Of a stretch of DNA of 64,000 nt, positions 4,690 through 37,352 are shown piece after piece. Source of the DNA: Ideonella sp. WA131b. GTDB taxonomy: Bacteria > Pseudomonadota > Gammaproteobacteria > Burkholderiales > Burkholderiaceae_C. Where the stretch lies: positions 1,674,001-1,738,000 of the forward strand of contig JAGTJW010000001.1 in NCBI GenBank assembly GCA_023657425.1. Reading direction: 5' to 3'. Below the pieces are notes generated by a model, which saw nothing but the letters and a program-made list of their open reading frames with translations, had not been told where the DNA came from and ran no database searches. Position 1 is the stretch's first letter; each line of letters opens with the position of its first letter. The position numbers and the translations under genes were made by a program.

Positions 4690-5397
4690 TCAGCGCAGGT
4701 GCCGCGCCAGGAAGGCCTCGGTGCGCTGCCAGGCCAGGGCGGCCGCCGCGGCGTCGTAGCCCAGCGCCGGCAGCGTCTCGTGGCCCGGGGTCTGCGTCTC
4801 GTTGGCGAAGGCGTGCTTGCAGTCGTAGCGGTGGAACTCGAGCGTGCAGCCGGCCGCACGGAGCTTCGCTTCCAGCGCGTCGACGTCGGCGATCTTGAAG
4901 AATGCGTCGTGCACCGCCCAGTGGCCGAGCATCGGCGCGGTGATCGCCGCGGCGTCCACGAACGCCAGCGGCGGCAGCCCGTACCAGGGCACCGCGGCGT
5001 CGAGCTCGCGCACGTGCACGGCGGCCAGGATGGTGAGCGCGCCACCCATGCAGAAGCCGGTGACGCCGACCTTGGCCGAGCCGCCGGCCTTGAGGAACTG
5101 CACCGCACCGCGCACGTCCTGCCCGGCGGCATCGCCGAAGTCCAGGGCGCTCATCAGGTGGTGCGCCTCCTCGGCCGCGACCGTGCTCTTGCCGCGGTAC
5201 AGGTCGGGCACCAGCGCGCGGTAGCCGGCGGCGGCCAGGCGGTCGGCAACGCCGCGGATCTGGTCGTTCAGGCCCCACCACTCCTGGATCACGACGAGGC
5301 CCGGCGCCCGGGCCGCCACCGCCGCATCGGCCGGATCGGCCAGATAGCCCTGCAGCGCCTGGCCGTCGGGGCGCTTGAAGCTGACGGTGTGTCCCAT
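4690..5397 (-). CDS. Dienelactone hydrolase family protein
   Basis: A 235-residue cytoplasmic alpha/beta hydrolase of normal family length. The dienelactone hydrolase triad is readable: nucleophile Cys116 in GFCMGG, Asp164 in the AVHDAFF region, and His195 in CKHAF. Glu39 in VIQEWWGLN matches the conserved Glu that orders the nucleophile. Classical members open dienelactones in chlorocatechol degradation, but no such pathway is nearby and most homologues have unknown substrates. The start MGHTVSFKRPDGQ matches the family, although the frame is open to 6357 across the amidase gene. It lies 28 bp downstream of the amidase gene. Confidence 0.88.
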   Translation of the reverse strand: MGHTVSFKRPDGQALQGYLADPADAAVAARAPGLVVIQEWWGLNDQIRGVADRLAAAGYRALVPDLYRGKSTVAAEEAHHLMSALDFGDAAGQDVRGAVQFLKAGGSAKVGVTGFCMGGALTILAAVHVRELDAAVPWYGLPPLAFVDAAAITAPMLGHWAVHDAFFKIADVDALEAKLRAAGCTLEFHRYDCKHAFANETQTPGHETLPALGYDAAAAALAWQRTEAFLARHLR

Positions 5398-5425
5398 GCT
5401 CGTCTCCGGTGGTTGATGAAGGCGT

Positions 5426-6826
5426 TCAGGCGGGCGGCTGCGGCCACGGCGGCAGCGGCCCCCGCAGCTGCTCGAAGGCGCGCGCCAGCCGCAGCACGCC
5501 CGTGTCGTTGTGGCGCGCCCCCGCGAACTGCACGCCGCAGGGCACGCCGCCGGCCAGCAGCCCGGTGGGCACGGCCACGGCCGGCTGCTCGCTGGCGTTG
5601 TACGGCAAGGTGAAGCCGATGTGGGCCATGGCGCGCGCCGGGTCGTTGCTGGGCATCGGCCACTCGGCCGGGAAGCCGCCGTTCGGCGCCACCGGCGACA
5701 GCACGTAGTCGAAGCGGGCGCAGGCCGCCACCGCGGCATCGCGCAGGCGACCGAACTGGCTGTAGCCGTGGAACGCCGTGGCAGCGTCGAAGCCGTCGGC
5801 CGGCGCCACCCAGGCCCGGATGAACGGCAGCACGCGCTCGCGCCGGCCCGGGGGCAGTGCCGCCAGGTCGAGCGCCGAGCGCAGCTGCCAGAAGCGCTCG
5901 ATGCCTTCGGCCATCTCGGCGCTGGTGAAGGGCGGCAAGGGTTCGACCACGGCGCCGGCCTCACGCAGCCGCGCCACGGCGTCGTCGAGCGCCGCGGCCA
6001 CGGCGGCGTCGACCGCCAGGCCCCAACCGGCATCGCGCAGCAGGCCGATGCGCAGTCCGCGAACGAAGCCGGCGCTGGTGCCGGCCACCTCGAGCCACGG
6101 CATCTCGGCGTAGGGCAGGCGCGTCGCATCGCGGTCGTCGGGTCGCGCGAGCACGGCCATGGCCGCGGCCACGTCGGCCACGTTGCGCGCCAGCGGGCCG
6201 GCCACGCGGCCCAGGTAGGGCGGGTGGATGGGCACGCGGCCATTGCTGGGCTTGAAGCCCACCACGCCACACCACGCGGCAGGCAGGCGGATGGAGCCAC
6301 CGATGTCGGTGCCGATGTGCAGCGGCCCGTAACCCGCGGCGGCGGCGGCGCCGGCACCAGCGCTGCTGCCGCCCGGGTTGAGGCCGCGGTTCCAGGGATT
6401 GCGCGTGAGCGCGTGGAAGCTCGACAGCCCGGAGCTGAGCATGCCGAAGTCGGGCATCGTGGTCTTGCCCAACAGCACGGCGCCGGCCTCGCGCAGGCGC
6501 GCTGCGGGGGGTGCGTCAGCCGGCGCAGGCTGCAGCTCGCTGGCCGCGGTGCCCAGCGGCACCGGCGTGCCGGCGGTGGCGATGTTCTCCTTGATCGTCA
6601 CCGGCACGCCGTCCAGCGGCGACAGCGGCTGGCCGCGGCGCCAGCGGGCCTCGGAGGCCTGCGCCTGGGCCAGCGCCTCGTCGGCATTCACCGCCCACAG
6701 CGCGGCGATGTGCGGCTCCCAGCGCGCCACCTGCGCCTGCACGTGGCGCAGCTGCTCCACCGGCGAACGCTCGCCGCGGGCGTAGGCCCGCGCCAGCGTG
6801 GCGGTGTCGTCGGCGGGCCCGGCCAT
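5426..6826 (-). CDS. Amidase-signature family hydrolase
   Basis: A 466-residue cytoplasmic amidase of the Ser-cisSer-Lys class. Lys79 is in VTIKENIA, the Gly/Ser loop GGSSAG is at about 152-157 with the cis-Ser at 154, and the nucleophile is Ser178 in GTDIGGSIRLPA. The NPWN and GFKPSNGRVP segments are also typical. Substrates in this family range from amides to ureides and indoleacetamide, so only the reaction class can be given. The gene precedes the dienelactone-hydrolase-like gene on the same strand, so the two hydrolases could act on one compound. The order is conserved in appearance only. Confidence 0.88.
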   Translation of the reverse strand: MAGPADDTATLARAYARGERSPVEQLRHVQAQVARWEPHIAALWAVNADEALAQAQASEARWRRGQPLSPLDGVPVTIKENIATAGTPVPLGTAASELQPAPADAPPAARLREAGAVLLGKTTMPDFGMLSSGLSSFHALTRNPWNRGLNPGGSSAGAGAAAAAGYGPLHIGTDIGGSIRLPAAWCGVVGFKPSNGRVPIHPPYLGRVAGPLARNVADVAAAMAVLARPDDRDATRLPYAEMPWLEVAGTSAGFVRGLRIGLLRDAGWGLAVDAAVAAALDDAVARLREAGAVVEPLPPFTSAEMAEGIERFWQLRSALDLAALPPGRRERVLPFIRAWVAPADGFDAATAFHGYSQFGRLRDAAVAACARFDYVLSPVAPNGGFPAEWPMPSNDPARAMAHIGFTLPYNASEQPAVAVPTGLLAGGVPCGVQFAGARHNDTGVLRLARAFEQLRGPLPPWPQPPA

Positions 6827-26415: not shown

Positions 26416-26787
26416 ATGACGACGCACACCGTGCTCATCGCGGATGACGAGCCCAGCATGCTCGTCACGCTGGAGTTCCTGATGCAGCGCGAGGGCTACC
26501 ACGTGCTGCTGGCGCGCGACGGCGATGAGGCGCTGGCGCAACTGCGCGCGCACCGGCCCGACTTCGTGCTGCTGGACGTGATGATGCCGGGCAAGACCGG
26601 CTTCGAGGTCTGCCAGGCGGTGCGCGCCGACGAGGCACTGGCCCGCACCAAGGTGCTGCTGCTGAGCGCCAAGGGCCGCGACATCGACATCGCCCAGGGG
26701 CTGGGCGTGGGCGCCGACGCCTACATGACCAAGCCGTTCTCCACGCGCGAGCTGGCGGCCCGGGTGCGCGGGCTGCTGGTGCCATGA
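26416..26787 (+). CDS. Single-domain response regulator
   Basis: A 123-residue CheY-like receiver with no output domain. The acidic pocket is Asp10/Asp11 in IADDEPS, the phosphoacceptor is Asp54 in VLLDVMMPG, the switch Ser is in LLLSAKG and Lys106 is in MTKPFS. It would pass or receive phosphate through protein contacts rather than bind DNA. Its stop overlaps the ATG of the sensor-exonuclease gene by 4 nt, so the two are translated together. The partner lacks a recognisable phospho-His, which makes the signalling route unclear. Confidence 0.9.
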   Translation: MTTHTVLIADDEPSMLVTLEFLMQREGYHVLLARDGDEALAQLRAHRPDFVLLDVMMPGKTGFEVCQAVRADEALARTKVLLLSAKGRDIDIAQGLGVGADAYMTKPFSTRELAARVRGLLVP

Positions 26788-28976
26788 AGCCGGCCTCGGA
26801 CCGTGCGGCGCTGGTGGCCGCTGTTGCGCCGGCCGCGCTGCTGGCCGCAGCGCTGGGCGGCACCGGCGCGCTGTTGGCGGCCACCTTGGCATCGGACGAA
26901 CGCGCCATGGCCTGGTCGTGGCTGGAGCCGCGGCTGGCGCTGGTTCTGATGCTGTGGCTGGTGGCGTCCATCGCCCTGGGCGCAGGGGCCCGTGCGCTGT
27001 GGCTGCGCCACGGCGCCTCAGCCGGGCGCCTGGCCGAGACCCTGCAGGTGCTGCGCCTGGCGCCGGCTGGCCGGCGGCTCGGGCTCGACGGCCAGCCGCG
27101 CGGCACACGCGCGCTGGCCGAGACCGTCAACGCCTTGCTGGCCGAGCGCGAGGCGCTGCTCGGCACCATCGACCGCCGCGTGGCCGAGGCCGCGGAGGGC
27201 ATCGCGCAGGAGCGCAACCGCCTGGCGGCGCTGATGGCCGAGCTGACGCAGAGCGTGGTGGTGTGCAACCTCGACGGTCGCGTGCTGCTGTTCAACGCCC
27301 GCGCGCGGCTGCAGTTCGGCGCGCTGGCCCAGGCGCGGGCTGACGGCGTGACCCACGGCCCGATCGGCGGTGCCGAGCCGCTGGCGCTGGGCCGCAGCAT
27401 CCATGCCGTGCTCGACCGCCGGCTCGTCGCGCACGCGCTGGAGTCTGTGCAGCAGCGGCTGGCATGCGGCGCTGCACACGCGTCGGCCACCTTTGTGACG
27501 GGCACCCGCGGGGGCCCGCTGCTGCGCGTCCAGCTGGCGCCGGTGCGTTCGCCCGGCGGCGAAGCCCGGGCGCTGGACGGCTACGTGCTGATGCTCGACA
27601 ACGTCACCCACGACCTCGGCGAGGAGCTCGCGCGCGACCGCGCGCTGCACCGCCTGGCCGAAAGCCAACGTGCGGCCCTGGGCACCCTGCGCGCGGCCGT
27701 GGAGCTGCTCGACGAACCCGGCCTGGCGCCGCCCGTGCGCGAACGTTTCTTCGCCATCGTGCGCGACGAGATCGGCACCCTGACGCGCCAGTTGGACGAC
27801 GCCGCCGCTGCGGGGCTGCAGGCGCAGAAGACGCGCTGGCCGCTGGAGGTGATGCTGGGGGCCGACTTCGTGGCCACGGCTGCGCGCAGGCTCCAGGCCG
27901 GCGGTGGCCCGCGTGTGGCCAGCGGCGAGGTCGACCCGGCGCTGTGGCTGCGCGTGGACAGCTACTCGCTGCTGCAGGCCCTGGCCCACCTGGCTGGCCG
28001 TCTGGCCGGTGACTACGGGGTGGCCTGGCTGGCGCTGCGCCTGCAGCCCACGGCCACGCCGGGCGATGGCAAGGCCTGGCTCGATCTCGTGTGGCCGGCT
28101 CAGCCCATGAGCACCGAGACCGTGACGGCCTGGGAGGCCGAGCCCATCGTGGCCGACGGCGAGCCCACCGGGCTGAGCGTGCGCGACGTGCTCGAGCGCC
28201 ACGGCGGCACGCTGTGGTTCGAGCGCGCCCGCGCCCGCCAGGAGTGCTTCTTCCGCCTGCTGCTGCCGCAAGCCGCCGGCGCGGTCGCCCCGCTGGCGGT
28301 GGCGCTGCCCGACAGCCGGCCCGAGTTCTACGACTTCGAGCTCTTCGGCCGCGGCGGCGATGCCGGTGGCGGCCCCGACCGGCCGCTGGCCGAGCTGGTC
28401 TACACCGTGTTCGACACCGAGACCACCGGCCTGGACCCGGCCGGCGGCGACGAAATCATCCAGATCGGTGCCACGCGCGTGGTGGCGGGCAAGGTGCGGC
28501 GCGAGTCGGTGTTCGAGCAGCTGGTGGACCCGCAGCGCAGCGTGCCCGAGGCCGGCATCGCCATCCACGGCATCCGGCCCGGGCAGCTGGCCGGCCAGCC
28601 GACCATCGCCGCGGTGCTGCCGGCCTTTGCCGACTTTGCCGCCGACACCGTGCTGGTGGCGCACAACGCCGCCTTCGACCTGCGCTTCCTGCAGCTCAAG
28701 GAGGCGTCCACCGGCGTGCGCTTCGGGCAGCCGGTGCTCGACACGCTGCTGCTGTCGGCCGTGCTGCACCCCGGGCAGGAGAGCCACCGCCTGGAGGCCA
28801 TCGCCGAGCGGCTGGGCGTGCCGCTGCTGGGCCGCCACACGGCTTTGGGCGACGCCATCGTCACCGCCGAGGTCTTCGTCAAGATGCTGCCGCTGCTGCG
28901 CGAGCGCGGCCTCGTCACACTGGGCCAGGTGCTGGAGGCCAGCCGCGCCACCTGGCAGGCGCGCGTGCGGTACTGA
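26784..28976 (+). CDS. Membrane sensor-like protein fused to a DnaQ-type 3'-5' exonuclease
   Basis: A 730-residue fusion. Residues about 10-35 and 50-72 are membrane helices; 75-145 resemble a HAMP/linker helix; about 145-275 are PAS-like (MAELTQSVVVCNLDGRVLLFNA). Residues 283-345 stand where a histidine-kinase dimerisation helix would be, but no phospho-His is visible in ESQRAALGTLRAA. The 350-496 part ends like an HATPase domain (LSVRDVLERHGGTLWF) without recognisable N and G boxes. Residues about 538-715 are an intact DEDDh exonuclease: Asp544/Glu546 in FDTETTGL, Asp632 in AHNAAFDLRF, and His685/Asp690 in GRHTALGDA. It closes the actP cluster. Confidence 0.85.
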   Translation: MKPASDRAALVAAVAPAALLAAALGGTGALLAATLASDERAMAWSWLEPRLALVLMLWLVASIALGAGARALWLRHGASAGRLAETLQVLRLAPAGRRLGLDGQPRGTRALAETVNALLAEREALLGTIDRRVAEAAEGIAQERNRLAALMAELTQSVVVCNLDGRVLLFNARARLQFGALAQARADGVTHGPIGGAEPLALGRSIHAVLDRRLVAHALESVQQRLACGAAHASATFVTGTRGGPLLRVQLAPVRSPGGEARALDGYVLMLDNVTHDLGEELARDRALHRLAESQRAALGTLRAAVELLDEPGLAPPVRERFFAIVRDEIGTLTRQLDDAAAAGLQAQKTRWPLEVMLGADFVATAARRLQAGGGPRVASGEVDPALWLRVDSYSLLQALAHLAGRLAGDYGVAWLALRLQPTATPGDGKAWLDLVWPAQPMSTETVTAWEAEPIVADGEPTGLSVRDVLERHGGTLWFERARARQECFFRLLLPQAAGAVAPLAVALPDSRPEFYDFELFGRGGDAGGGPDRPLAELVYTVFDTETTGLDPAGGDEIIQIGATRVVAGKVRRESVFEQLVDPQRSVPEAGIAIHGIRPGQLAGQPTIAAVLPAFADFAADTVLVAHNAAFDLRFLQLKEASTGVRFGQPVLDTLLLSAVLHPGQESHRLEAIAERLGVPLLGRHTALGDAIVTAEVFVKMLPLLRERGLVTLGQVLEASRATWQARVRY

Positions 28977-29197: not shown

Positions 29198-29552
29198 GAT
29201 GGATCGCACTGTAGGCAGCGGCCCCGTGCCGCACCACGGCGATGCGACGGGCTGCAGTTGCGCCGCGGTGAAGCGCGGCGTCGATTGATGGACGGTGCGT
29301 AGACGCCGGTCCCAGGCTTGCGGTGGCGCCCACTGCGGCAAGCCCGCCTTGGGGCCGGCTGCCGCCTCACAAGCGGCTTCTGGGAACCGTGCCCAAGCAC
29401 GGAGGGCGTGCGTCCGTTCTGGCGGGGCCACCATAGGACGAGGGTTAGTCCTCTCCCCCCCCCCCCCAAGTAACCCGTCAATGATCTGGCGTGTGGACTC
29501 GCGCAGAGTCCCCTTCAAGAGTGCAACAAGGATTCTGCTGAAGTAGACGCCC
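29198..29552. other. Gene-free structured stretch upstream of the export cassette
   Basis: No credible coding sequence was found. The stretch contains an imperfect hairpin with ggcttgc (29315-29321) against gcaagcc (29338-29344) inside gccgg/ccggc outer arms, a short gccgc/gcggc dyad near 29361-29377, and the C13 tract at 29455-29467. The promoter of the HlyD-led cassette should lie here, but no clear -35/-10 pair is visible. Confidence 0.5.
29455..29467 (+). repeat. Homopolymeric C13 tract
   Basis: Thirteen consecutive C residues lie 85 bp before the HlyD start codon. Tracts of this length are prone to slipped-strand length change, and in a promoter spacer this could give phase-variable expression. 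It is also a place where sequencing or assembly may miscount. Confidence 0.85.
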
Positions 29553-30908
29553 ATGGCCACAGCGCTGTTCCGCCAGGAAGTTCTGGAAGGGCAGAAGGCC
29601 CAGTGGCTGGGTGCCATCCGCATTGCGCGGCCTCCCAGCTTTGCCTGGGTCACGGGCATCAGCATCGTGCTGGCGCTGGCCTTGCTGGCGTTTTCCGTGT
29701 GGGGCCAAGTCACGCGCAAGGCGCGCTTGGGTGGCCTGCTGGTGCCCACCGGCGGCTTGGTTCAGGTGGTGGCGCCGCAGGCCGGCACCGTGGCCGACTG
29801 GATGGTGGCCGAAGGCGACAGCGTCATCGCGGGCCAGACGCTGGCCCGCATCAGCTTGGAGCGCCACACCGCCAACGGTGAAGCGCATGCGCTCTCCAGG
29901 ATCGCCATGGAGCAGCGGCGAAGCAGCCTTGAAGCGGAGTTGCGCGTCGTCGATCAGCAAACCCGCCAGCGGCATGACGCCTTGTCAGACCGCATCCGCA
30001 GCCTGGCGACCGAAGAGCGACAGGCGCAGGACAATCTGGAGACATCGGCGCAGCGGGTTCAACTGGCCCAGCAGAACCTGCGGCGTTACCAGGAGCTGGC
30101 GTCCAGCGGCTTTGTGTCGGCGCTTCAAGCCCAAGAGCGGCACGAGGAACTGTTGGACCTGCTGGCCCGCCAGAGCGCGGCGCAGCGGCAGGTGCAGGCT
30201 TTGCAGCGTGATCAGCAGAGCTTGGTGGCCGAGCAGGCCCAGAACGCCAGCAGCGGCCAGAGCAGCCGCCAGCAGGTGCAACGGGCCCTGGCGAGCCTGG
30301 ACCAGGAGGCGATAGAGGCCGATGCGCGTCAAGCCGTGCTGCTCAAGGCCAGCAAGGCCGGCCGGGTGTCTGCGGTGGCGGTGCAGCGGGGTCACACCGT
30401 GCAACCCGGCCAGCCGGTGATGAGCCTGGTGACGCAGGTGCAACCAGCAGCCACCGCGCCGACCCACGACTCGGCGCCCGCGGACGGCGCCCTCGAGGCC
30501 CATCTGTTTGCGCCGACCCGCACCGCGGGCTTCGTGCGCCCCGGCCAGCCAGTCTGGCTGCGCTACGCCGCCTATCCCTACCAGAAGTTCGGCATGGCGC
30601 GCGGCGAGGTGCTGCAGGTCAGCGAATCCCCGCTCAACGCGCAGGAGTTACCACCTGGCCTGGCGCAGGGTGTGATCAGCCTTGCCGGCACCCAAGAACC
30701 CTTGCGCCGCATCACCGTGAGGCTGGATCAACAGTTCATCGAGGCTTACGGCGAACGCATCGCGCTCACAGCCGGCGCGTCGCTGGAAGCGGATGTGGTG
30801 CAGGAGAAGCGCTCGGTATGGGAGTGGCTGTTTGAACCGCTGCTGGCGGCCAGACAGCACTTGAAGGTTCTGTCGGATCACCCTGAGAAGCTCGGCACGA
30901 ATGGGTGA
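29553..30908 (+). CDS. HlyD-family periplasmic adaptor of a peptide exporter
   Basis: A 451-residue membrane-fusion protein linking an inner-membrane ABC exporter to an outer-membrane TolC-like channel. It has a short cytoplasmic N-terminus, one helix at about 31-50 (VTGISIVLALALLAFSVWG), a biotinyl-lipoyl-like half (GTVADWMVAEGDSVIAGQTLARI), a long coiled-coil of Gln/Arg/Leu heptads (about 110-275), the second lipoyl half (GRVSAVAVQRGHTVQPGQPVMSL), and a C-terminal beta domain. The layout matches CvaA/MchE adaptors of double-glycine bacteriocins. The C39 ABC transporter at 32894 is the obvious partner; no TolC gene is in the window. Confidence 0.88.
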   Translation: MATALFRQEVLEGQKAQWLGAIRIARPPSFAWVTGISIVLALALLAFSVWGQVTRKARLGGLLVPTGGLVQVVAPQAGTVADWMVAEGDSVIAGQTLARISLERHTANGEAHALSRIAMEQRRSSLEAELRVVDQQTRQRHDALSDRIRSLATEERQAQDNLETSAQRVQLAQQNLRRYQELASSGFVSALQAQERHEELLDLLARQSAAQRQVQALQRDQQSLVAEQAQNASSGQSSRQQVQRALASLDQEAIEADARQAVLLKASKAGRVSAVAVQRGHTVQPGQPVMSLVTQVQPAATAPTHDSAPADGALEAHLFAPTRTAGFVRPGQPVWLRYAAYPYQKFGMARGEVLQVSESPLNAQELPPGLAQGVISLAGTQEPLRRITVRLDQQFIEAYGERIALTAGASLEADVVQEKRSVWEWLFEPLLAARQHLKVLSDHPEKLGTNG

Positions 30909-30967
30909 GCTGGGGGGTGGGGCAGAGGCGGGCCGGCGCTGTCCGGCGGATCAATCAGGAGACTTGA

Positions 30968-31297
30968 ATGAAACTGATCTCAACCGAACTACTCGCCCTT
31001 GTCGCTGGCGGAGACGCTGCCGTTACACGACCTCCCGGAACAAACTCTTGGGGGGAGAAGCTCCCAGAGCTCGTTGATGCTGTTTGCACCCACATCGAAA
31101 TCGGCCCACTGAACAAGTCGTGGTGCATAAACAGCAACGGAACAAAGACCGAGACGCTGTGCACAGGGGCTAACAAGGGCGTTAAGGGCGTTGGGGGCGC
31201 TGGGGTAGGCGTTTGCTCGTCTGTGACGACACCGTTAGGAGCTTCTAACTCCCAATTTGGAGGCCCCTCCTCGTTGGTACGGCAAGATTCCTTCTGA
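30968..31297 (+). CDS. Double-glycine leader peptide, putative exported bacteriocin-like precursor
   Basis: A 109-residue protein starting MKLISTELLALVAGG, matching the double-glycine leader pattern (E-L-x-x-V-x-G-G at 7-15) recognised by C39 peptidase exporters. Cleavage after Gly15 would release a 94-residue core with exactly four cysteines (40, 53, 65, 83), enough for two disulfides, and a Gly/Val-rich stretch GVKGVGGAGVGVC. No database family is recognised. AGGAGA lies 5 bp before the ATG. It sits between its likely adaptor and exporter genes. Bacteriocin, signalling peptide or other effector are all possible; no obvious immunity gene is next to it. Confidence 0.7.
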   Translation: MKLISTELLALVAGGDAAVTRPPGTNSWGEKLPELVDAVCTHIEIGPLNKSWCINSNGTKTETLCTGANKGVKGVGGAGVGVCSSVTTPLGASNSQFGGPSSLVRQDSF

Positions 31298-31324
31298 GGA
31301 GGAGGTTTGTAGCGTAGATGGCAG

Positions 31325-31357
31325 GCGACGGACCGCTAAGCCATAGCGGCCCGTCGC
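31325..31357 (+). terminator. Strong hairpin after the double-glycine peptide gene
   Basis: cgacgg-a-ccgcta (31326-31338) pairs with tagcgg-c-ccgtcg (31344-31356) around a 5-nt loop, with one A:C mismatch; g31325/c31357 extend the stem. It lies 28 nt after the peptide stop. The downstream sequence is GAAAGAGATAATG, without a T-tract, so it may stabilise the mRNA 3' end or cause partial termination rather than act as a classical terminator. Confidence 0.5.
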
Positions 31358-31490
31358 GAAAGAGATAATGGGCTCTCCTGAAATTTGTGTGGGTAGCCTG
31401 GGGGCCGACCGAGTCCCGAAGACGTCGCCTGTATGGACATCCCCCACCCCCAACCCGCCCCCGAGGGCGGGAAGGTCCTCGCCGCCGGAC

Positions 31491-31535
31491 GGGCTCGGGA
31501 GCCAGGCGCCGCAAGGCTTTGCCTGGCCCGAGCCC
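31491..31535 (+). repeat. Long inverted repeat (hairpin 1) upstream of the HExxH protein gene
   Basis: gggctcggg (31491-31499) plus ccaggc (31502-31507) pair with gcctgg (31521-31526) plus cccgagccc (31527-31535): a 15-bp stem with a 2-nt bulge and a 13-nt loop. It is far more GC-rich than the genes on either side, which suggests a separate origin, and it is followed after 14 nt by a second, larger hairpin. Confidence 0.6.
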
Positions 31536-31549
31536 TGGAGCGTAGAGGC

Positions 31550-31612
31550 GGATTCGGGCGCGTCAAGGGTCCGCTGCGCCGGGCTTCGCCCGCCCTTGAC
31601 CCACCCGAATCC
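31550..31612 (+). repeat. Long inverted repeat (hairpin 2) upstream of the HExxH protein gene
   Basis: ggattcggg (31550-31558) and gtcaaggg (31562-31569) pair with cccttgac (31593-31600) and cccgaatcc (31604-31612), giving 17 bp of perfect arms with a 3x3 internal loop; the apical part can fold further (gggc ttc gccc). It ends 58 nt before the ATG at 31671. It could be an RNA regulatory structure or a mobile palindromic element. Confidence 0.6.
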
Positions 31613-31670
31613 AACCACTCGAGATTCAAGAGAGGCAGATAATGCCGTTCTCGTGAACTTCGGAGCCATA

Positions 31671-32696
31671 ATGCGTCAGTGCGCAAAGACCATCGCAGCT
31701 TCAGTCACAATGGCGCTTGTGGTTTCCGCCGCGACGCTAGGTTCCAGAAACCTGCAAGCGGAACAGCGGAAAGACTCGATGCCGAGGGTCGGCCAAACGG
31801 TTGAGTCGGTGGTGCGTCCAAGTATTGATTCCGTAAGTTGTTCGCAATTCAATTCGAGGCTGATGGCAAAATCTCCTGCTAAAGGCGCTGTCAATCCAGC
31901 CGTAGCAGAGGAATTCTTGATCTATCTTCGACAAGTCGGCGCAGACATGGGTGCGCAGATTGTTGAGGTTGCGCCGCGCGAATTTGCTTGGTGGCTTCAT
32001 GTATTGGGGCCGGTGAGCGCGCTGACCGTAACAATGGCGATTCATGAGACATCGCATGATGTTGATCAATACCTCCGAATCTGCGGAGATGGAACAGCGA
32101 GGTATCGTATCGGCGTAGATCTCTTTGCGTCTGGAATCAGACGGGGAGAGTCCCCGACGATTGCGTCATCGCTAACCCAAGGCAACAGCAGGGCTCTGCA
32201 TTTGATGACCGAGATTCGGCGCAGAAAGTATGTTTTCGAAGCCGCCTCTGGCAACGACATAACTTCTTTGTTTGGAGAATTGACTGCGTATCTCGGTGAA
32301 GCCGATACAGAAATTGCTCTCTATCGCAGGCATCTTTCCGGGGAGCGAATGATGGCGCCCGGTGTTACTGCCATTAACGGAGGGCTGTCTGGTCTTATTG
32401 ACATGACCGTACTCATGAAGGTATATCTTCAGGCTCTTCAGCGGGATGATCCGGCCGCCTTTGAAAGAGTCTTTCTAAAGACCAATGTGTCATGCTTGAT
32501 TTCAAGAGCACACGCCGACTCACGGGACTTGGTGAATAGAGCAGTTGAGCTTGACATCCAGCGACGTCTTGGGTTCGATATAGGACTCTCGCGATTGGCG
32601 GCGTTGCGCTTTGCGGAACTGGTAGAGGTTGGCTCAAGAGGAGGCGGGATCTATGCTGACATTAAGCGGCGGGCAGCAGTTTCCAAGACCTGTTAG
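31671..32696 (+). CDS. Putative secreted HExxH zinc metallopeptidase-like protein, family unknown
   Basis: A 341-residue protein from the ATG at 31671; the open frame extends to 31368 but the upstream part crosses two hairpins. The N-terminus MRQCAKTIAASVTMALVVSA is signal-peptide-like, with possible cleavage near residue 30. Residues 125-129 read HETSH, the HExxH zinc-binding motif, inside a hydrophobic helix (ALTVTMAIHETSHDVDQYLR). Glu203 in FGELTAYLGEAD lies in a plausible place for a third ligand, as in gluzincins. Cysteines at 57, 137, 275 and 341 may form disulfides. Visibly lower GC than the surroundings suggests transfer. Role in processing, activity or protection of the peptide is inference. 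Confidence 0.6.
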   Translation: MRQCAKTIAASVTMALVVSAATLGSRNLQAEQRKDSMPRVGQTVESVVRPSIDSVSCSQFNSRLMAKSPAKGAVNPAVAEEFLIYLRQVGADMGAQIVEVAPREFAWWLHVLGPVSALTVTMAIHETSHDVDQYLRICGDGTARYRIGVDLFASGIRRGESPTIASSLTQGNSRALHLMTEIRRRKYVFEAASGNDITSLFGELTAYLGEADTEIALYRRHLSGERMMAPGVTAINGGLSGLIDMTVLMKVYLQALQRDDPAAFERVFLKTNVSCLISRAHADSRDLVNRAVELDIQRRLGFDIGLSRLAALRFAELVEVGSRGGGIYADIKRRAAVSKTC

Positions 32697-32759
32697 CCTA
32701 AGTGATTGGTGCTCTAGGTCATGACGAAATCATTCTCATCGTGTGATTGAATTCGTTCA

Positions 32760-32897
32760 ATGCCCTCATTCGCCGTATCAACCGGTCGTTGTGCGAGTGA
32801 GTGGGCGGCAACCTTCTTGGCTCAATCTTCCGTCGTTGCTGCGTCGTTGCCTTTGGTTGACCTGGGCGAACTTCCAGCGGCTTTGGACCTGCCATGA
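32760..32897 (+). CDS. Possible 45-residue ORF overlapping the exporter start
   Basis: ATG at 32760 opens a 45-codon frame beginning MPSFAVSTGRCASEW and ending in TGA at 32895-32897, so its stop and the exporter ATG (32894) form an ATGA overlap. The exporter has no visible Shine-Dalgarno sequence, so translational coupling would make sense of this ORF. It has no recognisable family, and its own ribosome-binding site is poor. It may be chance. Confidence 0.25.
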   Translation: MPSFAVSTGRCASEWAATFLAQSSVVAASLPLVDLGELPAALDLP

Positions 32898-35077
32898 AGG
32901 CCATCCTTCAGACCCAGGCCGCCGAGTGTGGCTTGGCCTGCCTGGCGATGGTGTGTGCACACCATGCCCAGCACATCGAATTGGCTGCGTTACGCAGGCA
33001 GCTGCCCATCAGCCATAAAGGGGCCACGCTGCGCCAGTTGATGCAAGGCGCCAGCCAGCTGGGCTTTTCGTCGCGCCCGCTGCGCTTGGAGATGGATGAG
33101 ATGTCGCAGCTCACCACGCCTGCCATCCTCCACTGGAACCTCAATCACTTCGTCGTCTTGGCCGGCTTCAAGCGCGGCAAGGCCGTGATCCTGGATCCTG
33201 CCATCGGTGAGCGTCGGCTGTCGCTGGCGGAGGTCTCGAAGCACTTCACCGGGGTTGCATTGGAGCTCACGCCCCATGTGGACTTCAAGCCTCAGCAGTC
33301 GCCGCCGCGCGTCAAGCTCTCGGCGCTCATCGGCAAGGTGCAGGGCATCAGGCGTTCGCTGCTTCAGATCTTTGCAGTCGCGCTCGTCCTGCAGCTCTTC
33401 GCCATCGCCGGCCCCCTGGCCAATCAGGCCGTCGTCGACGATGTGTTGACCTCGGGCGATCACGATCTGCTCACGGTCGTGGTGCTGGGCTTTGGCATCC
33501 TGATGGTGATTCAAACCGCCCTGGGCTTTGCGCGCAGTTGGATGGTGATGGTGCTGGGCCAGACGCTCTCGTTGCAGTGGATGGGCAACGTCTTCGCGCA
33601 CTTGATCCGCCTGCCGCTGCGCTACTTCGAACAACGGCATCTGGGCGACATCACCTCGCGCTTCGGTTCCGTCGGCGTCATCCAGCAGACGGTCACCACG
33701 GCGGTTGTCGAGGCGGTGCTGGACGGCCTGATGGCGGTGGCCGCCCTGATCATGATGTTGTTGTACGCCCCGGTGCTGGCCTCGGTCGTCATCACTGCGG
33801 TCTGTGCATATGGGCTTGTGCGCTGGGCTTCGTTCCGCCCCTTCCGCGATGCGGCCGCCGAGCACCTGGTCGTCTCGGCCAAAGAGAGCACGCACTTTCT
33901 CGAAACCCTACGTGGCATCCTGCCTCTCAAGTTGTTCGGCAGGGAAGAAGAGCGACGCGCCCTTTGGCAGAACCTCATCGTCGAGGTGCAGAACCGTGAT
34001 GTGCGCACCGCCAAGATGGGCATCGCCTTCTCCACGGCCAATGCCTTCATCTTTGGCATCGAGAACCTGGTGGTGCTGTGGCTGGGGGCCAAGCTGATCA
34101 TGGGCGCGCAGCAGTCGGGCGGCCTGCACGCGGCCGCGGCGGCCGATGCAGGTGCCAGCGCCTTCACGCTGGGCATGCTGATGGCTTTTCTCAGCTACAA
34201 GGGCCAGTTCACAGGGCGGGTGTCGGCGCTGATCGACTATGCCGTGCAGATCAAGATGCTGGGCCTGCACAGCGAGCGTCTGGCCGACATCGCCCTGGAG
34301 CCGCCCGAGCGGGACGAGGTGCCCTACAACGATCTGCAGCATCTTGAGCCGTCGCTGGAGCTGCGCCATGTGAGTTTTCGCTATGGCGAGGGCGAGCCCT
34401 GGATTCTGGAGAAGGCCAGCTTCAAGGTGGAGGCCGGCCAGAGCGTGGCCGTGATGGGCCCGAGTGGCGCTGGCAAGACCACCTTGCTCAAGATCGTGTT
34501 GGGCATTCTGGAGCCGCAAGAAGGAACGGTGCTTTACGGCGGCGTTCCGATGCACCAGCTGGGCATTGCCAACGTGCGCAGGCGCATCGGCACCGTGATG
34601 CAGGACGACGTGTTGTTGACCGGCAGCATCGCGGACAACATCAGCTTCTTCGATGTCGAGATGGACCACACGCGTGTGCAAGATTGCGCCAAGCTGGCCA
34701 ACGTGCACGCCGACATCATCCGCATGCCGATGGGTTATCACACGCTGATCGGAGACCTGGGTTCGGGTCTGAGCGGCGGCCAGAAGCAGCGCATCCTGCT
34801 GGCCCGTGCGCTCTACAAGGCGCCCCGCGTGCTGGCACTCGATGAGGCCACCAGCCACCTGGACGTCGCCAATGAGCAGGCCGTCACGGCTGCTCTGTCC
34901 ATGCTGACGCTCACCCGATTGATCATCTCGCACCGCCCCGAGACGATGGCTGGCGTACAGCGGGTTGTGCAGCTGACGGACGGCCAAGTGGGGGAGGTGA
35001 AGATTGGAAAGCCGGGTGATGGCATGCGGCCGGTCGAGACCGTGACGCAGCATGGGCGTGACGATCAGCCAGCTTGA
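32894..35077 (+). CDS. C39-peptidase-domain ABC exporter (bacteriocin/peptide type)
   Basis: A 727-residue inner-membrane ABC exporter that both cleaves double-glycine leaders and exports the core. The N-terminal C39 peptidase (about 1-125) shows catalytic Cys12 in QTQAAECGLACLAMV, His85 in LNHFVVLAG and Asp101 in VILDPA. Six transmembrane helices fill about 150-440. The nucleotide-binding domain has Walker A GPSGAGKT near 523, the signature LSGGQKQR near 626, Walker B RVLALDEATS and an H-loop ISHRPE. The family matches CvaB/MchF. The peptide at 30968 is the obvious substrate and the HlyD protein at 29553 the adaptor. Confidence 0.93.
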   Translation: MKAILQTQAAECGLACLAMVCAHHAQHIELAALRRQLPISHKGATLRQLMQGASQLGFSSRPLRLEMDEMSQLTTPAILHWNLNHFVVLAGFKRGKAVILDPAIGERRLSLAEVSKHFTGVALELTPHVDFKPQQSPPRVKLSALIGKVQGIRRSLLQIFAVALVLQLFAIAGPLANQAVVDDVLTSGDHDLLTVVVLGFGILMVIQTALGFARSWMVMVLGQTLSLQWMGNVFAHLIRLPLRYFEQRHLGDITSRFGSVGVIQQTVTTAVVEAVLDGLMAVAALIMMLLYAPVLASVVITAVCAYGLVRWASFRPFRDAAAEHLVVSAKESTHFLETLRGILPLKLFGREEERRALWQNLIVEVQNRDVRTAKMGIAFSTANAFIFGIENLVVLWLGAKLIMGAQQSGGLHAAAAADAGASAFTLGMLMAFLSYKGQFTGRVSALIDYAVQIKMLGLHSERLADIALEPPERDEVPYNDLQHLEPSLELRHVSFRYGEGEPWILEKASFKVEAGQSVAVMGPSGAGKTTLLKIVLGILEPQEGTVLYGGVPMHQLGIANVRRRIGTVMQDDVLLTGSIADNISFFDVEMDHTRVQDCAKLANVHADIIRMPMGYHTLIGDLGSGLSGGQKQRILLARALYKAPRVLALDEATSHLDVANEQAVTAALSMLTLTRLIISHRPETMAGVQRVVQLTDGQVGEVKIGKPGDGMRPVETVTQHGRDDQPA

Positions 35078-35792: not shown

Positions 35793-37352
35793 TCACGCCG
35801 CAAACAAGCCGCGATTCCGCTCGCGCAGCAGGTTCTTCTGCACCTTGCCCATGGCGTTGCGCGGCAACTCGCTCACCACCTCCACGAACTTGGGCACCTT
35901 GAAGCCGGCGATGCGCCCCTTGAGTGCACCGATCAGCGCCGCGGGCTCGGGCGCGGCGGTGCCCGGCCGGGCCACCACCACGGCGATCACGGCCTCGCCG
36001 AAATCGGGGTGCGGCACGCCCACCACGGCGCTCTCGGCCACGCCGGGCAAGGCGTTCAGGAAGCCCTCGATCTCGGCCGGGTAGACGTTGTAGCCGCCGG
36101 TGATGACCAGGTCCTTGCTGCGGCCGACGATGGTGCAGAAGCCGTCGGCCTCGAGCTTGCCGACGTCGCCGGTGCGGAACCAGCCGTCGGCGGTGAACTC
36201 TTCGGCCGTCTTCTCCGGCATGCGCCAGTAACCCTTGAAGACGCTGGGGCCCCGCACCTGCATGTGGCCCACCTCGCCCGGCGGCAGCACCGCGCCATCG
36301 TCGCCCACCACGCGCAGGCCCACGCCGGGCAGCGCCGGCCCCACCGTGCCGCCGCGGCGCGCGGCCTCGGGGCGGTAGGGGTTGCTGGTGAGCATGACGG
36401 TCTCGCTCATGCCGTAGCGCTCCAGGATGACGTGGCCGGTGCGCGCGCGCCAGGCCTGGAAGGTCTCCAGCAGCAGCGGTGCGGAGCCGCTGATGAACAG
36501 GCGCATGCCGCGGCAGGCCTCGGCCGTGAGGCCGGGTTCGGCGAGCAGCCGCACATAGAGCGTGGGCACGCCCATGAAGACGCTGGCCTCGGGCAGCCGC
36601 GCCACCACGGCCCGGGGGTCGAAGCGGTTGAGCCACAGCATCTTCGCGCCCGCCAGCAGCGCGCCGTGGCAGGCCACGAACAGGCCGTGCACGTGGAAGA
36701 TGGGCAGCGCGTGGATCAGCGTGTCGCGGCCCTGCGCGCCCCCGGTGCGCCAGGCCCAGGCGCGCTTCAGCACCTCGGCATTGCTGCGCAGGTTGCCGTG
36801 CGTGAGCATCGCGCCCTTGCTGCGCCCGGTGGTGCCGCTGGTGTACAGGATGGCCGCCAGGTCGTCGTCGCCGCGCAAGGCCGGCTCGTGCGTGTCGGCG
36901 TGCTGCGCGGCGCGCTGCAGCAGCGAGCCGCTGCGGTCGTCGCCGAGCGTGAACACGTGCCTCGTGCCGGCCCTGAACGCGATCTTGGCCAGCCATCCGA
37001 AGGCCTTGGGCGTGCAAACCACCAGTGCCGGCTCGGCGTTGCCGACGAAGTACCCGATCTCGGCCGCCTGGTAGGCGCTGTTCAGCGGCAGGAACACATG
37101 GCCGCTGCGCAGGACGGCCAGGTACAGGATGAGCGCCTCGACGCTCTTGTCGACCTGCACCGCCACGCGCGAGGCGGGCGGCAGGTCGAGCGAGTCGATG
37201 AGGTTGGCCATCATCGCGCTGGCGCGCTCGAGGTCGCGCCAGGTGTAGGCCAGGCCGTCCGACGACATGGCGGTGTCGGTCGTCTCGATGGCGATGGTGT
37301 CGAGATCGGCCGGAAAGCCGCCCCGCAGGGCGACGAAGAGGTTGGCGTTCAA
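35793..37352 (-). CDS. matB: Malonyl-CoA synthetase
   Basis: ATP-dependent ligation of malonate (or methylmalonate) to CoA through an acyl-adenylate, in the cytoplasm. A 519-residue ANL-superfamily enzyme with the P-loop YTSGTTGRSKGAML near residue 170, A5 motif YGMSETVM, A7/A8 motifs WFRTGDVGKLEADGF and GRSKDLVITGGYNVYP, and the C-terminal catalytic Lys in ELPRNAMGKVQKNLL. LPIFHVHGLFVA is characteristic of MatB. The nearby malonyl-CoA decarboxylase and GntR regulator support the assignment. It is the last gene of a minus-strand operon; a 64-bp palindromic repeat separates it from the receptor gene. Confidence 0.92.
   Translation of the reverse strand: MNANLFVALRGGFPADLDTIAIETTDTAMSSDGLAYTWRDLERASAMMANLIDSLDLPPASRVAVQVDKSVEALILYLAVLRSGHVFLPLNSAYQAAEIGYFVGNAEPALVVCTPKAFGWLAKIAFRAGTRHVFTLGDDRSGSLLQRAAQHADTHEPALRGDDDLAAILYTSGTTGRSKGAMLTHGNLRSNAEVLKRAWAWRTGGAQGRDTLIHALPIFHVHGLFVACHGALLAGAKMLWLNRFDPRAVVARLPEASVFMGVPTLYVRLLAEPGLTAEACRGMRLFISGSAPLLLETFQAWRARTGHVILERYGMSETVMLTSNPYRPEAARRGGTVGPALPGVGLRVVGDDGAVLPPGEVGHMQVRGPSVFKGYWRMPEKTAEEFTADGWFRTGDVGKLEADGFCTIVGRSKDLVITGGYNVYPAEIEGFLNALPGVAESAVVGVPHPDFGEAVIAVVVARPGTAAPEPAALIGALKGRIAGFKVPKFVEVVSELPRNAMGKVQKNLLRERNRGLFAA

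What the first reader, a model, noticed from the sequence alone, without database searches (positions are those of the whole stretch)
29553..35077. Compact export cassette for a novel double-glycine peptide, with a putative zinc peptidase built in
Four same-strand genes: HlyD adaptor, 109-residue GG-leader peptide, signal-peptide HExxH protein, C39 ABC exporter. CvaAB-type export of leader-cleaved peptides is established. The peptide and the HExxH protein match no family I recognise, part of the region is lower in GC, and no immunity gene or TolC is adjacent. The combination of C39 exporter and a separate secreted metallopeptidase is the most likely undescribed system here.
Basis: partly seen in the sequence, partly recalled or inferred. 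Interest (0 to 1): 0.85.

Follow-up and report, generated by a model that had tools for sequence, protein, structure and literature searches.

The report
Peptide exporter with built-in peptidase guard
Four neighbouring bacterial genes encode a small peptide with a predicted cut-here tag, a two-part pump predicted to trim and export it, and a protein bearing a zinc-peptidase motif that likely destroys the peptide if it comes back; in related bacteria the same gene position often holds other kinds of predicted peptidase.

Summary
The four genes are real and correctly placed: HlyD adaptor, 109-residue double-glycine peptide, 341-residue HExxH protein with a signal-like N-terminus, C39-ABC exporter with the three C39 catalytic residues. 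The HExxH protein matched no Pfam, NCBIfam, PHROG, PADLOC or PDB sequence; only two distant homologues were found. One, in a Rhodoferax MAG, lies in the identical four-gene order; the other is a lipoprotein with no exporter on the contig seen. HExxH and a downstream Glu are invariant in all three. In 28 related cassettes with a gap between HlyD and exporter, 16 hold a recognised or likely peptidase there: HExxH, TraB/PrgY, CPBP, rhomboid or ClpP-like (9 of 28 above a Pfam cut-off). CPBP and TraB genes are about 188- and 360-fold over-represented in these slots. Other slots hold small membrane proteins like microcin immunity proteins, and the CPBP-family protein of microcin S is a proven immunity protein. 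Best reading: the HExxH protein is a periplasmic, peptidase-type immunity factor of a class II microcin-like system. New variant of a known kind; the 'undescribed system' claim is partly supported.

The parts
29455..29467 (+). run of 13 C, 85 bp before the HlyD start; possibly slippery
   Evidence: only run of 11 or more C/G in the window
29553..30908 (+). HlyD-type periplasmic adaptor (451 aa)
   Evidence: HlyD_3 9.7e-9; TIGR01843 7e-31, below its cut-off
30968..31297 (+). double-glycine peptide precursor, 109 aa; predicted mature part 94 residues with 4 Cys
30968..31012 (+). predicted GG leader MKLISTELLALVAGG
   Evidence: strict leader pattern
31325..31357 (+). hairpin 27 nt after the peptide stop codon (14-nt arms, 93% complementary); no T run
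31491..31612 (+). two further inverted repeats (31491-31535, 31550-31612) between peptide and HExxH gene
   Evidence: fold z-scores -1.86 and -3.32
31671..32696 (+). HExxH protein, 341 aa, proposed start; ORF is open from 31368
   Evidence: no family
31671..31760 (+). predicted Sec signal segment (30 residues, ends LQA|E)
   Evidence: hydropathy 2.13 from residue 8; cleavage site read by eye
32043..32057 (+). HETSH motif, residues 125-129
   Evidence: H125, E126, H129 invariant in the 3 aligned proteins
32277..32279 (+). Glu203 in ELTAY, candidate third metal ligand
   Evidence: invariant in the 3 aligned proteins; role inferred
32894..35077 (+). C39 peptidase-ABC exporter (727 aa)
   Evidence: best PDB sequence matches are bacteriocin-type C39 exporters (4ry2 and relatives)
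32897..33277 (+). C39 domain; Cys12 (32927-32929), His85 (33146-33148), Asp101 (33194-33196)
   Evidence: aligned to the double-glycine protease domain 6mpz, E 4e-23; triad roles recalled

Best explanation
This is a class II microcin-like cassette in which the C39 exporter and HlyD adaptor likely cut and export a predicted double-glycine peptide, and the HExxH protein, predicted to be periplasmic, likely protects the producer by cleaving that peptide when it re-enters. Shown by sequence: the four genes and their order, the GG-type leader, the C39 triad residues, an HExxH motif and a downstream Glu invariant among three distant relatives, the same four-gene order in a second genus, and the repeated use of this gene position for envelope-like proteins, many of them peptidases of unrelated families. 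Inferred: cleavage after Gly15, export through a TolC-type channel encoded elsewhere, location of the HExxH protein in the periplasm, zinc binding, proteolysis and immunity. The periplasmic site argues for immunity rather than maturation: type I systems form continuous conduits across both membranes (abstract line of PMC8277102 in the listing), so a periplasmic peptidase would meet the peptide only on its way back in.
For: Four-gene order conserved in a Rhodoferax MAG although the HExxH proteins are only 22% identical over the alignment, 25% in the matched part. C39 triad residues present. Slot survey: 54 exporter rows in hand; 38 at 54.5% identity or more (a line I drew afterwards, so as to include L091), 34 of them with HlyD in hand, 28 with a slot over 250 bp. 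Of the 28, nine hold a Pfam peptidase family above its cut-off: TraB in L042, L091, L095, L047; CPBP in L047, L054, L059, L099, L093; rhomboid in L057. ClpP-like proteins in L044, L045, L052, L054, L096 rest on weak NCBIfam/PHROG matches and shared motifs; L051 is a CPBP match below cut-off (E 0.0074). With the two HExxH loci: 16 of 28. Over 23 genomes, 5 of 55 CPBP matches and 4 of 23 TraB matches fall in slots; 0.027 and 0.011 expected. The TraB proteins are 18-26%, the CPBP proteins 16-32% identical to each other. All 30 partner proteins put through a crude hydropathy test have a hydrophobic N-terminus or membrane segment (for two I chose a later start, and L063 is outside the 28) against 53 of 110 ORFs outside the cassettes. 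Small membrane proteins take the same place in L043, L055 and L090. Precedents, seen as passages: McsI, SkkI/PlnI/PlnL (PMC8538875), PrgY/TraB (PMC7117660), MccF (PMC6795089).
Against: No test of killing, immunity, zinc binding or proteolysis; no structure. Only two homologues of the HExxH protein; one (P0004) is a lipoprotein with no exporter on the 3.6-kb contig seen. The window peptide and the L096 peptide share a start (GGDAAxTRxPGxNSWGE) while the partners differ, HExxH against ClpP-like, so peptide and peptidase are not strictly paired. In Caulobacter, a CaaX protease next to the Cdz bacteriocin genes was not needed for killing (PMC5380434 passage). McsI itself was reported without predicted signal or transmembrane helix, so the precedent does not match on location. 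12 of 28 slots have no accepted peptidase: L043, L055, L058, L060, L061, L078 (glycosyltransferase), L086, L087, L088, L090, L092 (SelO-like), L097. CPBP and TraB were tested because they had been seen in slots; the P values (1e-10, 6e-10) would still stand after multiplying by about 25000 Pfam families. Loci are related, so not fully independent. The hydropathy test is crude: about half of the control ORFs pass it.
Confidence: 0.5

Rival explanations
1. The HExxH protein is a maturation or activation peptidase that makes a second cut in the exported peptide, as an accessory processing step.
For: A peptidase-like gene sits beside the peptide in 16 of 28 slots; order with the peptide conserved in two genera.
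Against: Predicted envelope site of the partners while type I export bypasses the periplasm; partner family differs between similar peptides; other slots hold small membrane proteins.
Confidence: 0.17
2. The peptide is a signal, and the envelope peptidase shuts off self-sensing by removing the cell's own exported peptide, as PrgY/TraB is thought to do with the enterococcal pheromone.
For: TraB/PrgY-family partners in 4 of 28 slots; PrgY precedent (PMC7117660 passage).
Against: No receptor or regulator gene seen among the four ORFs of the cassette; peptide cores are long (94 residues here) and several in other slots are glycine-rich, as in bacteriocins such as Cdz.
Confidence: 0.13
3. The HExxH protein is a non-catalytic binder, or an unrelated passenger of a low-GC exchange cassette.
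For: Slots are lower in GC than HlyD in 26 of 28 and than the exporter in 27 of 28; a lipoprotein relative without exporter on its contig exists; L078, L092 and L095 slots hold unrelated genes.
Against: H, E, H and the downstream Glu are invariant at about 20% identity; order conserved in two genera; CPBP and TraB enrichment.
Confidence: 0.15
4. The HExxH protein is itself the released toxin and the peptide is its immunity or helper.
For: HExxH toxin domains are known in polymorphic toxins (PMC3482391 passages).
Against: The peptide, not the HExxH protein, carries the C39-type leader; the HExxH protein carries a Sec-type segment.
Confidence: 0.05

Closest known systems
Microcin S operon mcsS-mcsI-mcsA-mcsB (E. 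coli G3/10)
   Same: microcin gene, HlyD and C39-type exporter with a peptidase-family gene next to the peptide; McsI shown to give immunity (PMC3316575 passages)
   Different: McsI is a CAAX-family protein of 216 aa with no predicted signal; here a 341-aa HExxH protein with signal-like N-terminus and no CPBP match; the gene order differs
Colicin V / class II microcin export (CvaA, CvaB, CvaC, Cvi)
   Same: C39-ABC exporter, HlyD adaptor, GG-leader peptide, TolC encoded elsewhere (recalled; component list in PMC9746304 passage)
   Different: no Cvi-like small membrane protein found here; an HExxH protein takes the place
Abi/CPBP immunity proteins SkkI, PlnI, PlnL of lactic acid bacteria
   Same: putative proteases suggested to degrade the cognate bacteriocin (PMC8538875 passage)
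   Different: CPBP family; no Pfam CPBP match in the window's HExxH protein
PrgY/TraB pheromone shutdown proteins
   Same: envelope peptidase thought to remove the cell's own exported peptide (PMC7117660 passage); TraB-family proteins fill 4 of 28 related slots
   Different: TraB family, signalling peptide, Gram-positive
Cdz two-peptide bacteriocin (Caulobacter)
   Same: type I exported glycine-zipper peptides; CaaX protease gene nearby (PMC5380434 passages)
   Different: immunity by small membrane protein CdzI; the CaaX gene was not needed for killing

Membership tests
Class II microcin / CvaAB-type export cassette | precursor with double-glycine leader | tested here: met
   MKLISTELLALVAGG fits the strict pattern
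Class II microcin / CvaAB-type export cassette | C39-ABC exporter with Cys-His-Asp triad | tested here: met
   C12, H85, D101 aligned to 6mpz
Class II microcin / CvaAB-type export cassette | HlyD-type adaptor | tested here: met
   HlyD_3 above cut-off
Class II microcin / CvaAB-type export cassette | TolC-type channel available | tested here: met
   13 OEP-domain matches elsewhere in the genome, none in the window; which one serves is unknown
Class II microcin / CvaAB-type export cassette | cognate immunity protein (known ones 51-216 aa, tend to be inner-membrane; PMC9746304 passage) | tested here: inconclusive
   no small membrane ORF among 27 ORFs of 25 aa or more in the slot; the HExxH protein is the candidate
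Class II microcin / CvaAB-type export cassette | antibacterial activity | not testable with these tools
   needs experiment
Zincin (HExxH) metallopeptidase | HExxH in a conserved position | tested here: met
   invariant in the 3 aligned proteins
Zincin (HExxH) metallopeptidase | third metal ligand downstream (Glu in gluzincins; recalled) | tested here: inconclusive
   Glu203 invariant, 74-76 residues after the second His; binding untested
Zincin (HExxH) metallopeptidase | zincin fold | not tested
CPBP/McsI immunity family | Pfam PF02517 match | tested here: not met
   no Pfam match for the HExxH protein
NHLP/NHLM bacteriocin export | TIGR03796 above cut-off | tested here: not met
   451.6 bits against cut-off 853.3

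The most novel reading that the evidence does not exclude
The gene slot between HlyD and the C39 exporter in these Burkholderiales cassettes is a swappable immunity slot in which secreted or membrane peptidases of at least five unrelated families (HExxH, TraB/PrgY, ClpP-like, CPBP, rhomboid) have been recruited to destroy the producer's own peptide in its envelope; the window carries one of the two founding members of a previously unnamed periplasmic zinc-peptidase immunity family.
Probability: 0.4. Interest if true: 0.78.

Novelty: new variant of a known kind. Interest (0 to 1): 0.6.

Why it matters
Known class II microcin immunity proteins are 51-216 aa and tend to be membrane proteins, and a published search pipeline keeps only candidates of 30-250 aa (PMC9746304 passages), so a 341-aa secreted peptidase would be missed. 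If right, 'immunity by proteolysis' would be a general solution reached several times over, immunity genes of many orphan GG peptides would become recognisable, and the peptide-peptidase pairs would give ready substrate-enzyme pairs. In the listings of ten literature searches, which cover open-licence PMC papers only and are not exhaustive, I saw no report of HExxH, ClpP-like or rhomboid partners in such cassettes; CaaX/CPBP neighbours are already described.

Tried and rejected
Filing the HExxH protein under a known family: Pfam, NCBIfam, PADLOC, PHROGs and PDB by sequence and by profile gave nothing. L012 was a weak match inside a GGDEF/EAL protein and was dropped as spurious. An order-wide draw of 399 genomes gave no further HExxH homologue, nor did the plasmid collection for the HExxH protein or the peptide. 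Of 16 exporter rows below 54.5% identity, 13 have no slot (104 bp or less) and 3 do (L063, L065, L066); these 16 were left out of the counts. Exporters that I did not fetch (most of those listed at 55% or less) were not examined; that search scored at most two candidates per genome, so copies may be missed. Further exporter searches by genus added loci in two genera and none in three. The own-genus search did not complete; in the family draw, of five other genomes of the genus, four have a best exporter match of 51-52% and one has none at 1e-120. Structure prediction led nowhere. Promoter-like and terminator-like scans found nothing above chance. Not counted as peptidases: L060 (hydrolase-like by eye only; no PHROG match), L061 (CPBP-like by eye, no Pfam match), L097 (alpha/beta hydrolase matches below cut-off). 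In one search the row for L090 used wrong coordinates and is set aside.
Full report
Observation. The four ORFs lie on the + strand at 29553-30908, 30968-31297, 31671-32696 (ORF open from 31368) and 32894-35077. The first is a HlyD-type adaptor, the last a C39-ABC exporter whose best PDB sequence matches are bacteriocin-type C39 exporters (4ry2 and relatives); Cys12, His85 and Asp101 align with the double-glycine protease domain 6mpz. The peptide begins MKLISTELLALVAGG. The HExxH protein starts with a signal-like segment and carries HETSH at residues 125-129. The slot has 56% GC against 68% for HlyD and 64% for the exporter. The nearest large ORFs are an exonuclease-domain ORF upstream (26784-28976) and, on the other strand, an AMP-binding enzyme downstream (35793-37352). 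The genome (3.87 Mb, 3 contigs) has 13 OEP-domain matches, none in the window.

The two unknown proteins. The HExxH protein has no match in Pfam, NCBIfam, PADLOC, PHROGs or PDB sequences (two PHROG matches of E above 0.2 concern its Rhodoferax homologue). Among 5.8 billion proteins the single-sequence search found only itself at E up to 0.001, and a three-row profile added one, P0004, which is the full form of the L011 protein; that search only sees relatives sharing short exact words. In 399 genomes of the family, 4 had a match: the window itself, G027, G204 and a spurious one, L012 (judged). Of 399 genomes drawn from the order only the window matched. The genome-contig scan names the two: a Rhodoferax MAG (L083) and an uncultured-bacterium bin (L084). 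In the Rhodoferax MAG the order is HlyD, GG peptide (MREISELELGFVSGG), HETNH protein, C39 exporter, as in the window. In the other bin the domain is a lipoprotein by its N-terminus (MNHNTTAPRAAALLAMVALLVAC; lipobox read by eye) with no exporter on its 3.6-kb contig. Over 314 gap-free columns of the three-row alignment 36 are invariant, including H125, E126, H129 and E203; the Glu lies 74-76 residues after the second His. HExxH appears in 112 of 20000 shuffles of the window protein. The peptide has one 85% relative on a 1281-base contig (P0003), a weak relative in Rhodoferax (29%), and a relative in L096 that shares GGDAAxTRxPGxNSWGE.

The slot. Exporters with E up to 1e-120 occur in 134 of 399 family genomes (at most two candidates scored per genome). 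I fetched the 20 closest loci, 18 more of the list, chosen by me, and 15 from the remaining genomes of two genera; with the window that is 54 rows. At 54.5% identity or more there are 38, 34 of them with HlyD in hand, 28 with a slot over 250 bp and 6 with none. The line at 54.5% was drawn afterwards so as to include L091. Contents of the 28: HExxH (window, L046); TraB/PrgY (L042, L091, L095, L047); CPBP/Rce1 (L047, L054, L059, L099, L093; L051 below cut-off); rhomboid (L057); ClpP-like (L044, L045, L052, L054, L096); alpha/beta hydrolase below cut-off (L097); hydrolase-like by eye (L060); CPBP-like by eye (L061); an unnamed family (L058, L086, L087; alignment); small membrane proteins (L043; L055 with DUF6404; L090 by hydropathy); SelO-like (L092); peptide alone (L088); glycosyltransferase and others (L078). 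Peptidase-like in the sense counted: 16 of 28; above a Pfam cut-off: 9 of 28. The ClpP-like call rests on NCBIfam matches far below cut-off (L045 1.6e-4, L044 4.5e-4, L054 3.5e-3; none for L096 and L052), PHROG matches (protease: L045 3.5e-10, L054 9.5e-9, L096 6.2e-6, L052 4e-4; head maturation protease: L044 1.8e-4), a ClpP chain as best but insignificant PDB match of their profile (E 0.12), and a shared GGD...CxSACA...H pattern (alignment of four; L044 by eye).

Controls. In 23 slot-bearing genomes there are 55 CPBP matches, of which 5 lie in slots (G066, G098, G096, and two in G800; one of these, in L093, lies in the first of two tandem sub-slots); 0.027 were expected from slot length. Of 23 TraB matches 4 lie in slots (G066, G228, G787, G800); 0.011 were expected. 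The expectation uses rounded genome sizes and counts the slot of L078, whose genome was not among the 23, which makes it slightly too high. The families were chosen after seeing the slots; the P values (1e-10 and 6e-10) would withstand a factor of 25000. Leaders of a strict pattern, which I wrote after seeing the first leaders: 18 in 53 kb of slot against 9 in 655 kb outside or on the other strand; 18 of 28 slots hold one. In L044 the strict match is not the likely leader (MRDLTIFECGYVAGG is, by eye); in L055, L057, L093 and L096 a leader is plain by eye. Slot GC is lower than HlyD in 26 of 28 and than the exporter in 27 of 28. Partners of one family are very diverged (TraB 18-26%, ClpP-like 22-29%, CPBP 16-32% including L051 and L061, the latter with a faulty end). 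All 30 partner proteins tested pass a crude test for a hydrophobic N-terminus or membrane segment (starts of two chosen by me, one protein, L063, from outside the 28), against 53 of 110 ORFs of 200 aa or more outside the cassettes. In the window slot no small membrane ORF was found.

Reading. A position that is filled either by small membrane proteins, as in classical microcin immunity, or by envelope-like peptidases of unrelated families, next to a GG peptide, is best read as an immunity slot. Microcin S supplies the experimental precedent: McsI, a CAAX-family protein beside mcsS, protects a sensitive strain (PMC3316575), though it was reported without predicted signal or membrane helix. SkkI, PlnI and PlnL are suggested to degrade their bacteriocins (PMC8538875); PrgY is thought to degrade the cell's own pheromone (PMC7117660); MccF protects against microcin C (PMC6795089). 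Because type I systems form continuous conduits across both membranes (abstract line of PMC8277102, listing), a periplasmic peptidase would see the peptide on re-entry, not on exit. Against this, the CaaX gene near Caulobacter cdz was not needed for killing (PMC5380434), and the pairing of peptide type and partner is loose.

Papers. Seen as passages found by term: PMC3482391, PMC8538875, PMC7117660, PMC6795089, PMC9746304, PMC3316575, PMC2761928, PMC5380434. All others only as search listings. Ligand rules of zincins, the GG-leader consensus and the C39 triad are recalled, the triad also appearing in the PMC9746304 passage.

Verdict. The finding is real and well spotted; the combination is not a new kind of system but a new, likely proteolytic, variant of microcin immunity with a new HExxH family. 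Confidence 0.5 for immunity, higher for the export cassette itself.

Noticed in passing
window 29455-29467: A run of 13 C 85 bp before the HlyD start, the only run of 11 or more C/G in the window; could allow phase-variable expression.
   Followed up: partly
window 31325-31357, 31491-31535, 31550-31612: Three hairpins in the 373-base gap between peptide and HExxH gene; possibly set the ratio of peptide to partner.
   Followed up: partly
L093:3183-4910: An exporter copy that runs in frame into HlyD-like sequence between two tandem cassettes, looking like a deletion between neighbouring cassettes.
   Followed up: no
L095:4537-5361: HlyC-like acyltransferase (PF02794, 5.7e-9) in a slot beside a TraB protein and a GG peptide.
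   Followed up: no
L092 (reverse strand 5094-6587): SelO-like protein (PF02696, 5.6e-6) in an exporter slot.
   Followed up: no
L055, L093, L094: GG peptides rich in glycine-zipper-like repeats followed by DUF6404-type small membrane proteins (Pfam for L055 and L093; L094 by eye); resemble Cdz-type pairs.
   Followed up: no
L058, L086, L087: A protein family with signal-like N-terminus (LPRxExSG motif, no Pfam match) beside near-identical GG leaders such as MTELTQDEIDQVHGG, duplicated in L058.
   Followed up: partly
G800 (L093, L095, L097, L099): One genome carries four exporter copies of this clade with different partners: CPBP plus DUF6404, TraB, alpha/beta hydrolase, CPBP.
   Followed up: partly
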